The notes beneath the pieces are model-generated. The model ran no database searches. It was given only the letters and a program-made list of their open reading frames with translations, and had not been told where the DNA came from. The position numbers were made by a program, and so were the translations under genes. 64,000 nt of DNA from Halobacterium sp. CBA1132 (GTDB taxonomy: Archaea > Halobacteriota > Halobacteria > Halobacteriales > Halobacteriaceae): contig NZ_BCMZ01000001.1 in assembly GCF_001485535.1 (NCBI RefSeq), positions 496,001 to 560,000 on the forward strand, read 5' to 3'. Shown one piece after another: positions 12,455 through 34,398 of the stretch. Each line of letters starts with the position of its first letter. Position 1 is the first letter of the stretch.

Positions 12455-13093
12455 ATGGGACTGCTCTCGACACTCAAATCGCTGCTCGGAATGGAGGAGG
12501 AGAGCCGCTCCGCCGGGAGCGGCGTCGACGTAACCGTCGAACACGAACCGTCGACGGAATCCGAGCGAGCGGTCAAGGAATCGGACGCTGAAACCGGAGA
12601 CGAGGACGACGTCGACGAAACGGTCGCGACCGAAACCGACGCGGCCGCCTCGACGGAGTCGCTGGTCGACGAGGAACACACCGACGACTCGACGCGCGCC
12701 GCCGAACCGGCCGAAGCCGCCGGTACGGGCGACGAAGAAGTGCCCGAGACGGCCGAGGACGGCGTCGACGAAGCGGTCGCGTCCGAGACCGACGCGGCTG
12801 CTTCCACGGAGTCGCTGGTCGACGAGGACCACACCGACGACCCGACGCGGGCCGCCGAACCCGCGGAAGCCGCCAGCACGGGCGACGACGAGGACGCGAC
12901 CGAGTCGGTCGACGGCGAATCGGTCACCGTGCTGAAGGGCATCGGACCGGCGTACGCCGACCGCCTCGAAGAGGCGGGCGTCCACACCGTCGCGGACCTC
13001 GCGGCCGCCGACCCCGAGGAAATCGCCGAGCGTATTGACCTCTCCGCGAAGCGGGTCGGCCGCTGGGTGGACGCCGCACAGAACCACGACTGA
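12455..13093 (+). CDS. Acidic helix-hairpin-helix protein with internal duplication
   Basis: A 212-aa protein. Residues 1-12 form a short amphipathic start, 13-156 an Asp/Glu/Ala/Thr-rich disordered region, and 157-210 a helix-hairpin-helix domain (TVLKGIGPAYADRLEEAGVHTVADLAAADPEE), a non-specific DNA-binding fold. Residues 53-95 are repeated at 104-146 with 37 of 43 identical, a 153-bp direct repeat. The ATG at 12455 follows a TTTAAG box. Function unknown; haloarchaeal proteins of this plan are common, and partners cannot be inferred. Confidence 0.75.
   Translation: MGLLSTLKSLLGMEEESRSAGSGVDVTVEHEPSTESERAVKESDAETGDEDDVDETVATETDAAASTESLVDEEHTDDSTRAAEPAEAAGTGDEEVPETAEDGVDEAVASETDAAASTESLVDEDHTDDPTRAAEPAEAASTGDDEDATESVDGESVTVLKGIGPAYADRLEEAGVHTVADLAAADPEEIAERIDLSAKRVGRWVDAAQNHD
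12611..12892 (+). repeat. In-frame duplication, two 129-bp units 153 bp apart
   Basis: Units at 12611-12739 and 12764-12892 encode residues 53-95 and 104-146, which share TDAAASTESLVDE, HTDD and TRAAEPAEAA. Because it lies within a disordered acidic linker, copy number could vary between strains. Confidence 0.85.
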
Positions 13094-32438: not shown

Positions 32439-32780
32439 CTAGCTCGTGGTGGCGTGGGCGGCCTCGGTCGCCTCCGCGGCGTCGACGGGTTCGTCGCTGA
32501 GGAGGTCTTCGAGCACCGCCGGGTCGAGCGCGTCGGCGACGTCGTCGAGGACGCGCTCGCGCTCCCGGATGGCTTCGGCGTCGCCGTCGTAGAAGCGGAC
32601 GTACTCGGCGCGCGTGTGTTCGCGGAGCCCGTGCTTGATGGCGAAGAACCCCTCGGGGACCGTCTCATCGCAGATTTCGCACTCGTGGGCGTCGTGGTCC
32701 GCGACCTGATGGGCCAACAGCGCTTCGACGCTTCCGAACGTCGACCCACAGCCGACAATCGCACACTCCCACGCAGACAT
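32439..32780 (-). CDS. Small two-zinc-finger protein
   Basis: A 113-aa acidic protein with two C2H2-like fingers: CAIVGCGSTFGSVEALLAHQ (C-x4-C-x12-H, next His four residues later) and CEICDETVPEGFFAIKHGLREH. A helical acidic tail follows (DDVADALDPAVLEDLLSDEP). I believe this matches a haloarchaeal family numbered DUF7565, from memory. Likely nucleic-acid or protein binding. Confidence 0.7.
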   Translation of the reverse strand: MSAWECAIVGCGSTFGSVEALLAHQVADHDAHECEICDETVPEGFFAIKHGLREHTRAEYVRFYDGDAEAIRERERVLDDVADALDPAVLEDLLSDEPVDAAEATEAAHATTS

Positions 32781-33007
32781 GGGTATCCGTAGCCTGAGCG
32801 CGCAAATAAACCTTGTGTCGGATTCTCGACCACTGAACCCGCTCCGTCAGTCGATTGTATGCTTTCTGTCTGACGAATTATCGCGCCGAGAGCACTTAGA
32901 GGGGGACGTTACCGCATAACAATCGAGCCCTGATGCGGGCGGTAGGGACTTCCTGAAGTGGTTCTTGGGAAAACCGCCCGCAAAGTAATCCGCTACTGCC
33001 CGCCACG
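32781..33007. other. AT-richer gene-poor stretch with possible gene-tail remnant
   Basis: No gene stands out. A short open end reads FLKWFLGKPPAK-stop in plus frame (TTCCTGAAGTGG to TAA, 32950-32988), with an in-frame stop about 23 codons further up, so any coding sequence is broken. The sequence GATTGTATGCTTTC at about 32853-32866 is unusually AT-rich for this genome. It could be a decayed mobile-element end, unproven. Confidence 0.35.
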
Positions 33008-33250
33008 CTTCCGGAAATCAGAGATTCTCGACGTCAGGCTCGTTTCACTCACCAGACTTCCGGGAGACTCCGTCTCCCGACGAGTGGCTCACTGCTGTTC
33101 GCTCTTCCGGAAATCGAAGATTTCCGGCGTCTGCCTCGCTACTGCTCGCCAGACTTCCGAAAATCACCGATTTTCGGCGACTGGTTCGTGTTACTCACCA
33201 GACTTCCGGGAGACTCCGTCTCCCGACGAGTGGCTCACTGCTGTTCGCCA
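33008..33250. repeat. Five-unit array of about 49-bp hairpin repeats
   Basis: Units begin with CTTCCG at 33008, 33057, 33104, 33154 and 33203 (spacings 49, 47, 50 and 49). After CTTC, units 2 and 5 carry CGGGAGAC-TCC-GTCTCCCG, unit 3 CCGGAAATC-GAA-GATTTCCGG and unit 4 CCGAAAATC-ACC-GATTTTCGG, all perfect stems; unit 1 is imperfect. Bases differ between units while pairing is kept. Positions 33047-33102 and 33193-33248 are identical over 56 bp. The last copy contains the acyl-CoA dehydrogenase stop. Confidence 0.85.
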
Positions 33251-34398
33251 CTCTGCCTATAGATGAGGTTCCGCTGAATCTCGTTGGCGCCCTCGTAGAT
33301 GACCGGGATGCGGGCGTCGCGATAGACGCGGGCGATGCGGCGGTCGGTGAGAATCGAGCGCCCGCCGTGGAACTGCATCCCCTGTTCGGCGTTGTCGACG
33401 GCGACCTCCGTGGACTTCGTCTTCGCCATCGCCGCCCACAGGCCGGGTTCGTCGTAGTTTTTGACCTTGTTGGCGGCGCGGTAGTTCAGCGCGCGCGCGG
33501 CCTCGAATTCGAGGCGCATGTCCGCGAGGCCGTGCTGGACGGCCTGGAAGTCCGCGACGTGGCGGCCGAACTCCTCGCGCTCGTGGACGAAGTCCCACGC
33601 TTCTTCGAGCGCGGCGGCGGCGAGACCGAGGCCGTGCCCGCCGACGACGACGCGGCCGTGGTTGAAGAAGTCCGCGAGCATCATGAACCCGGCTCCCTCG
33701 CTGCCGATGAGGTTCTCCTCGGGAATCCGGCAGTCGTCGAAGACGATGTGGGCTTGCTTGGACGCCCGCATCCCCATCTTCTCGGGGATGTGCTCGGCCA
33801 CGTACCCGTCGGCGTCCGTGGGCACGATGAAAAGCGAGTAGTCCATGTAGCGGTCGCCGGTGTCGCCGGTCTTGGCGTACACCGTCACCCAGTCGGCTTC
33901 GACGCCGTTCCCGATCCAGTACTTCTCGCCGTTCAGGACGTACTCGTCGCCGTCCGCGTCGGCGGTCGTGTGCATCCCCGCGAGGTCGGACCCGACGTCG
34001 GGCTCGGAGACCGCAAGCCCCGTAATCTGGTCGTTCGCCGCGACCGGGCGGAGGTACTCGTCTTTCTGGTCTTCGGTGCCGTACTCTTCGAGCATCTCCG
34101 CGCCGAAGCTCGCGAGCTGGAGGGTCAGCGCGATGCCGGCGTCCGCGCGGTAGAACTCCTCGGCGATTGCCAGCATCTGTTCGAGGTCGAGGCCGCGGCC
34201 GCCGTACTCCTCGCCGATGTCTTGGGCGACGAGTCCGGCGTCCATGCCGGCCTCCAGAATCTCCCACGGGTAGTCGCCGGTCCGGTAGAACTCTTCGGCG
34301 TTCGGCGCGATGTGCTCCTCGGAGAACTCGCGGGCGTCGCGTTTGACGTCCAGCGCGTGCTCGGGGACGATGTCCTCGGAGAGCAGGTTCAGACTCAT
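33235..34398 (-). CDS. Acyl-CoA dehydrogenase
   Basis: A 387-aa FAD flavoprotein that oxidises acyl-CoA to enoyl-CoA. It has the N-terminal helical domain, the beta-domain GLAVSEPDVGSDLAGMHTTADADGDEYVLNGEKYWIGNG and MGMRASKQAHIVFDDCRIPEENLIG, and the C-terminal bundle with QFHGGRSILTDRRIARVYRDARIPVIYEGANEIQR, where the Glu in YEG is at the catalytic-base position. Chain length is unknown. Its 3' end lies inside the repeat array. A neighbour crotonase is at 29.0 kb. Confidence 0.92.
   Translation of the reverse strand: MSLNLLSEDIVPEHALDVKRDAREFSEEHIAPNAEEFYRTGDYPWEILEAGMDAGLVAQDIGEEYGGRGLDLEQMLAIAEEFYRADAGIALTLQLASFGAEMLEEYGTEDQKDEYLRPVAANDQITGLAVSEPDVGSDLAGMHTTADADGDEYVLNGEKYWIGNGVEADWVTVYAKTGDTGDRYMDYSLFIVPTDADGYVAEHIPEKMGMRASKQAHIVFDDCRIPEENLIGSEGAGFMMLADFFNHGRVVVGGHGLGLAAAALEEAWDFVHEREEFGRHVADFQAVQHGLADMRLEFEAARALNYRAANKVKNYDEPGLWAAMAKTKSTEVAVDNAEQGMQFHGGRSILTDRRIARVYRDARIPVIYEGANEIQRNLIYRQSGEQQ

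What the first reader, a model, noticed from the sequence alone, without database searches (positions are those of the whole stretch)
33008..33250. Five-unit hairpin array with a period of about 49 bp and stem changes that keep pairing
Units starting CTTCCG at 33008, 33057, 33104, 33154 and 33203 each carry an inverted repeat at the same place. Stems differ (GGGAGAC, GGAAATC and GAAAATC types), but units 2 to 5 keep perfect pairing with 3-nt loops. That pattern suggests selection for structure rather than sequence, or repeated insertion of an element family. It differs from CRISPR because no repeat is conserved across all units. The last unit includes the stop of acyl-CoA dehydrogenase.
Basis: seen in the sequence. 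Interest (0 to 1): 0.72.

Follow-up and report, generated by a model that had tools for sequence, protein, structure and literature searches.

The report
Mobile paired-hairpin array at gene end
At the end of a fat-burning enzyme gene in a salt-loving archaeon, a 49-letter module made of two DNA hairpins is repeated five times; related two-hairpin modules insert elsewhere in these genomes, even inside genes, and their stems change sequence while keeping both sides matched, which is unusual for such small mobile DNA.

Summary
The array is real. Five units start where stated, 47-50 nt apart. The B next to the gene supplies the stop codon and last residues of the acyl-CoA dehydrogenase. Across Halobacteriaceae the same locus carries one to five B-A units with different stems that still pair (12 of 17 pairs change on both sides, versus 7.2 in shuffles), but several species have decayed copies. 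Triloop hairpins are about 30-fold enriched in intergenic DNA of this genome, and the same stem words recur across Halobacteriales. Two clean in-frame insertions inside genes, a 48-nt B-A module in a sister species and a 60-nt A-A module in a TnpB gene of this genome, show that two-hairpin modules move as units. Strand tests, missing T-runs and divergent-promoter sites argue against a general RNA or terminator role. Best reading: a head-to-tail array of a small mobile two-hairpin element, with pairing kept by arm-templated copying or structure-based recognition. The agent that moves it is unknown. I found no published description in the literature I could search.

The parts
33235..34398 (-). 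Acyl-CoA dehydrogenase gene whose last codons (Q-S-G-E-Q-Q-stop) lie in the array's first B hairpin
   Evidence: ORF; Pfam PF00441/PF02770/PF02771; orthologues outside Halobacteriaceae end at or near YRQS without GEQ
33228..33253 (-). Unit 5 B hairpin spanning the stop codon: GAGTGGC-GA-AC-AGCA-GT-GA-GCCACTC
   Evidence: pairs with its own partner better than with other species' partners in 15 orthologues, p<5e-5
33207..33225 (.). Unit 5 A hairpin CGGGAGAC-3 nt-GTCTCCCG
   Evidence: covariation
33181..33201 (-). Unit 4 B hairpin CTGGT-GA-GTAACAC-GA-ACCAG
33157..33177 (.). Unit 4 A hairpin CCGAAAATC-3 nt-GATTTTCGG
33129..33154 (-). Unit 3 B hairpin (GTCTG...CAGAC, GAGCAGTAGCGA loop, one mismatch)
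   Evidence: sequence; DNA fold
33107..33127 (.). Unit 3 A hairpin CCGGAAATC-3 nt-GATTTCCGG
33080..33103 (-). Unit 2 B region (same loop as unit 5, arm partly deleted)
   Evidence: sequence; 56-nt identity with unit 5 block
33061..33079 (.). Unit 2 A hairpin CGGGAGAC-3 nt-GTCTCCCG
33031..33057 (-). Unit 1 B hairpin (GTCTGGT-GAGTGAAACGA-GCCTGAC, imperfect)
   Evidence: sequence; CM match 33012-33061, 62 bits (a model training sequence)
33012..33030 (.). Unit 1 A hairpin, imperfect (decayed)
   Evidence: sequence
33008..33253 (-). Head-to-tail B-A array (five modules) downstream of and overlapping the gene end

Best explanation
The array is a head-to-tail series of a mobile module of about 49 nt made of two hairpins. 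In transcript sense these are B (AGTC-type arm, tandem GA/GA mismatch, two pairs, 3-4-nt loop) and A (8-9 bp, 3-nt loop, closed by C-G). It belongs to a population of 48-60-nt two-hairpin modules in Halobacterium and other haloarchaea that insert cleanly into intergenic DNA and occasionally in frame into genes (shown for one B-A and one A-A module). At this locus a module seated on the last codons of an acyl-CoA dehydrogenase in an ancestor of the Halobacteriaceae supplied the stop codon and the last residues (inferred from family-wide presence and from shorter orthologues outside the family). Further copies then accumulated behind it. Each module ends in CCGG and modules are preceded by GG, so a resident copy offers the next target; block duplication also contributed (duplication shown, target model inferred). 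Stems change while staying paired because arms are copied from each other at the DNA level (fold-back or template switching) and/or because an unknown enzyme recognises the folded hairpins rather than their sequence (inferred). A 3'-end RNA role at this gene would be secondary.
For: 48-nt B-A module cleanly inserted in frame in an acyl-CoA ligase gene of G008; the same site is empty in the orthologues of all 12 other Halobacterium genomes and in the tandem paralogue of G008 itself. No second copy of its B hairpin within 3 mismatches in that genome. 60-nt A-A module in frame in a TnpB of the window's own genome, absent from an 89%-identical TnpB. Module-sized indels (54, 59, 60, 60 nt) holding hairpin pairs between own genome and G002 at orthologous intergenic sites. 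Array present at the same gene in most Halobacteriaceae with different but paired stems. Within a species, array B loops repeat the gene-end loop (G018, G010, G003). Constant linkers with variable, fully paired stems in the A-A family when found by flanks only: 27/27 interior pairs versus 63% across members. Loop GTT versus AAC between two copies with the same arms and linker type and TTC versus GAA at an orthologous site fit arm-templated copying (spacer inversion). DNA-stable C-GNA-G loops without strand preference: 38/64, sense GNA:TNC 11:11; B sense:antisense 9:9.
Against: No mobilising enzyme identified. The three Y1 transposases in the genome lie next to TnpB genes, and TnpB flanks do not systematically carry these hairpins. 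Only two in-gene insertions seen, each from a different module type. Target preference (GG) rests on few cases. At the acyl-CoA dehydrogenase locus all modules are in sense orientation and B hairpins touching stop codons are 5 sense to 0 antisense, which a purely DNA-level account does not predict. A at gene 3' ends (1.4/kb convergent, 0.19/kb divergent) also fits a 3'-end role.
Confidence: 0.6

Rival explanations
1. An mRNA 3'-end element: B and A hairpins fold in the acyl-CoA dehydrogenase transcript, stabilise it against exonucleases or help termination, and selection for that RNA keeps the stems paired.
For: Array lies directly downstream of the gene in sense orientation in all species with it; stop-spanning B hairpin covaries; B at stop codons 5 sense, 0 antisense; A hairpins concentrate at gene 3' ends; a hairpin terminated 59% of transcripts in a Haloferax volcanii reporter test (PMC7237163).
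Against: No T-run after A hairpins (8/128 sides, control 6.7%) although T-stretches are the haloarchaeal intergenic signal (PMC7237163); genome-wide B has no strand preference and is commonest between divergent genes; stems decayed in G002, G004, G009 and H. salinarum; modules also insert inside genes.
Confidence: 0.2
2. Neutral mutational product: replication slippage at hairpins made the tandem copies of the gene end, and template switching (quasipalindrome correction) keeps arms matched; nothing is mobile or selected.
For: Block duplication inside the array; copies of the gene end in the array of G003 and at the DUF5815 gene (30-nt exact copy of the gene end); template switching can create and maintain perfect hairpins (PMC8794818); loops seen as reverse complements.
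Against: The 48-nt insertion in G008 cannot be built from the GAGGGGAAGAAG target and carries the family's B-A anatomy; the 60-nt TnpB insertion has the family's constant linkers; same stem words across 94 of 117 genomes.
Confidence: 0.15
3. Remnants of IS605/IS1341-type transposon ends (PATE-like), the hairpins being near-terminal palindromes moved by TnpA.
For: Haloquadratum has 52-bp terminal-only PATEs without target duplications (PMC3119063); our modules are 48-60 nt without clear duplications; genome has 25 TnpB and 3 TnpA matches.
Against: TnpB/TnpA flanks in this genome do not systematically carry A or B hairpins; arms vary freely, unlike sequence-specific IS ends.
Confidence: 0.05

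Closest known systems
REP / BIME / REPIN elements of bacteria
   Same: Short extragenic palindromes, mosaics of alternating hairpin units, tandem arrays, preference for gene 3' ends and avoidance of divergent regions (anatomy measured here; BIME description from general knowledge and PMC2817692 abstract).
   Different: Stem sequence is not conserved but pairing is; modules combine two unlike hairpins; every Y1 transposase in the genome is linked to a TnpB, none is an orphan RAYT; modules found in frame inside genes.
PATEs and SMRs of Haloquadratum (PMC3119063)
   Same: Very short haloarchaeal mobile repeats (down to 52 bp), palindromic, no target duplication.
   Different: No systematic match to IS605-type ends in this genome; tandem arrays of two unlike hairpins with variable stems.
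Haloarchaeal transcription terminators (PMC7237163)
   Same: Location behind genes; hairpins can terminate.
   Different: No T-stretch or strand bias; not confined to 3' ends (B).
Template-switch-maintained hairpins (PMC8794818)
   Same: Perfect stems kept through paired changes; spacer inversion.
   Different: Here the hairpins travel as defined two-hairpin modules with constant linkers.

Membership tests
REP/BIME/REPIN | Orphan single-copy RAYT (Y1) transposase in the genome | tested here: not met
   Three Y1 matches with identical scores (5.9e-39), each about 1.2 kb from a TnpB
REP/BIME/REPIN | Conserved palindrome sequence with GTAG/CGTC tag | tested here: not met
   Stems vary between units and species; constant parts are linkers, GA pairs and loops
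REP/BIME/REPIN | Extragenic, tandem/mosaic, avoids divergent regions | tested here: met
   A hairpins 1.4/kb convergent, 0.87 co-directional, 0.19 divergent; B does not avoid them
PATE / IS605 ends | Near-terminal palindromes shared with IS605-type transposons of the genome | tested here: not met
   No systematic A/B hairpins at 25 TnpB and 3 TnpA loci
PATE / IS605 ends | No target-site duplication | tested here: met
   G008 insertion has 0-1 nt; TnpB insertion at most an imperfect 4 nt
MITE | Terminal inverted repeats plus target-site duplication | tested here: not met
   Modules have two internal hairpins, no terminal inverted repeat of the whole and no clear duplication
CRISPR array | Near-identical repeats separated by unique spacers | tested here: not met
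   Both halves of the unit vary and pair internally; Cas genes were not searched for
Haloarchaeal terminator | T-stretch at the termination point | tested here: not met
   T-run >=4 within 25 nt: 8 of 128 sides, control 6.7%
Known structured RNA (Rfam 15) | Match above gathering score | tested here: not met
   Only tRNAs in 124 kb including the window; best array hit E = 0.92
Template-switch hairpin | Loop (spacer) inversion between copies with the same arms | tested here: inconclusive
   Two cases seen (GTT/AAC, TTC/GAA); not tested statistically

The most novel reading that the evidence does not exclude
Haloarchaea carry a class of very small mobile DNA modules recognised by folded shape rather than sequence: constant linkers and GNA/GA loop motifs, with stems that are rewritten on both arms together, inserting without target duplication and building tandem arrays that can supply genes with new C-termini and stop codons.
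Probability: 0.4. Interest if true: 0.85.

Novelty: new variant of a known kind. Interest (0 to 1): 0.7.

Why it matters
Perfectly paired but sequence-variable stems are normally read as proof of a selected RNA. Here the same signal sits on short insertable DNA modules with no transcript-strand preference, so it bears directly on how compensatory change arises (selection versus arm-templated copying). It also gives a concrete route by which tiny elements rewrite gene ends (stop codon and last residues) or add 16-20 residues inside proteins, and it supplies a marker (C-GNA-G triloops, GA/GA motif, constant linkers) with which the moving enzyme could be sought in laboratory haloarchaea.

Tried and rejected
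Rfam: nothing. Plasmid and phage collections by distant blastn: no match. Viral contigs: B-A pattern 0 hits; a 15-mer of the A-A linker gave 88 hits, and a flank check on most of them left five loose matches that by eye lack a second hairpin. IS605/TnpB ends as source: not supported. Terminator reading: no T-run. Literature searches gave PATEs, REPs, Haloferax 3' ends and template switching, but no description of these modules; subscription journals are not held. A first regular expression for the A-A family missed members because of greedy matching and was redone.

Full report
WHERE IT IS. The window is G000 contig 1, 496001-560000, from a Halobacterium (Halobacteriaceae): close relatives of the gene are named Halobacterium in the genome collection. 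On the minus strand the array follows an acyl-CoA dehydrogenase gene (33235-34398) and precedes a DUF7565 gene (32439-32780).

The five CTTCCG units and the triloop stems are as described; unit 1 is imperfect. The rest of each unit is a second hairpin. In transcript sense the array reads B-A-B-A-B-A-B-A-B-A. B has an outer stem, two GA/GA steps (classically a sheared tandem G-A motif; general knowledge), two inner pairs and a 3-4-nt loop. RNA and DNA folding both return this layout. The B nearest the gene holds its stop codon. Units 1-2 and 4-5 are a block duplication, with 56 identical nt.

A GENOME-WIDE CLASS. In 464 kb of this genome, perfect >=8-bp hairpins with 3-nt loops number 43 in intergenic DNA against 1.4 expected; other loop lengths are near expectation except 11 nt, which is the B loop. 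B motifs number 39 against 1.0 expected. In 804 kb, A hairpins are 1.4/kb between convergent genes, 0.87 co-directional and 0.19 divergent; B shows no such bias. A loops are GNA or its complement in 38/64 cases, equally on both strands (11:11), and B is 9 sense to 9 antisense in co-directional regions. The stem words recur in 94 of 117 Halobacteriales genomes with almost none for the reversed control pattern; the B core is in excess over its control in most haloarchaeal genomes and rare in other lineages of the phylum, one genus excepted.

THE LOCUS IN RELATIVES. In 15 Halobacteriaceae orthologues the B arm in the last codons pairs with its own downstream arm better than with those of other species (235 versus 197 +/- 9.8, p<5e-5); 75 orthologues outside the family show nothing. 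Units aligned across species and copies give 91.9% paired cells, 12 of 17 pairs with changes on both sides and 43 such cells against 12.5 +/- 2.8 shuffled; the A hairpin alone gives 93.8% and 19 against 6.2. These alignments were chosen from mostly intact units and ignore the tree, so they show that pairing survives where the hairpin survives, not that it always does. G002, G004, G009 and H. salinarum have decayed or lost it. Within a species the array's B loops often repeat the gene-end loop (G018 GAAGAATGA twice, G003 a copy of about 25 nt of the gene end), so the gene end is part of the repeating unit. A covariance model of the unit found the locus in most Halobacterium and other B-A units elsewhere.

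A SECOND GENE END. At a DUF5815 gene (own C1:1890744, also G002, G011, G012) a B-A unit is flanked by the gene end and an exact 30-nt copy of it reaching into the stop codon; both copies go on to a stop, TAA and TGA.

MODULES MOVE. In G008 a 48-nt B-A unit sits in frame in an acyl-CoA ligase gene (GAGGGG|AGTCCC...TTCCGGA|AAGAAG), adding 16 residues; orthologues in the 12 other Halobacterium genomes and the tandem paralogue in G008 itself lack it. Its B hairpin has no other copy within 3 mismatches in that genome. In the window's own genome a TnpB gene has a 60-nt, 20-residue insertion of another module type (two A hairpins joined by CAGCCCA/TGGGCTG), missing from an 89%-identical TnpB. Between own and G002 (about 90% identical) orthologous intergenic regions differ by clean 54-60-nt segments holding hairpin pairs, and by whole arrays. 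Members of the A-A family found by flanks alone keep 27/27 interior pairs although the stems differ.

WHAT IT LIKELY IS. Shown: modules of 48-60 nt with two hairpins, inserted as units; constant linkers and variable but paired stems; an array conserved in place across a family and including the stop codon. Inferred: insertion behind GG with the module's CCGG end offering the next site, which would explain head-to-tail growth; arms rewritten together by fold-back or template switching (loops occur as reverse complements of each other; the mechanism is established elsewhere, PMC8794818) or tolerated because recognition is by shape. Not shown: the enzyme, activity today, or any function for the host gene.

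ALTERNATIVES. An RNA 3'-end element fits the position and the 5:0 sense bias of B at stop codons but not the missing T-runs, the lack of strand bias, the divergent sites, the in-gene insertions and the decay in relatives. Pure slippage plus template switching fits the duplications but not new insertions at empty sites. IS605 ends do not systematically carry these hairpins here.

NOVELTY. The nearest named kinds are REP/BIME elements and Haloquadratum PATEs; both fail a tested defining feature. No description was found in the open literature searched, which does not cover subscription journals.

Noticed in passing
L138:3296-3795 (G000 C1:3296-3795): Divergent intergenic region of about 580 bp with ten B hairpins, first half on one strand and second half on the other, near the start of contig 1; could be an origin-type region, not tested.
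   Followed up: no
G000 C1:697283, 1402902, 1482752, 14336, 417210 (L004, L003, L002, L005, L008): Dispersed elements bounded by GAAAGCCC(T)CG... and ...CCTCGCCCTTTCAATCC with mosaic hairpins inside; the one at C1:697137 (about 430 nt) is missing from the orthologous site in G002.
   Followed up: partly
L192/L193 (G000 C1:1854836, C2:102946): Two near-identical TnpB genes carry a 20-residue in-frame insertion made of a 60-nt two-hairpin module.
   Followed up: yes
L265, L266 (G009, G011): B-A units next to what look like partial copies of a tRNA 3' end (T-arm sequence repeated).
   Followed up: no
L285, L286, L287 (G000 C1:1973653, 2208565, 2075479): Three near-identical B-A units followed by a conserved stretch with TTTTTGC...GCAAAAA around a hairpin, resembling a two-way terminator cassette.
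   Followed up: no
window 32936-32982: Long inverted repeat GCGGGCGGT...ACCGCCCGC just beyond the array, partly inside a 45-nt segment absent in G002.
   Followed up: no
window 12601-12888: 153-bp tandem repeat, 1.9 copies, 89% matches.
   Followed up: no
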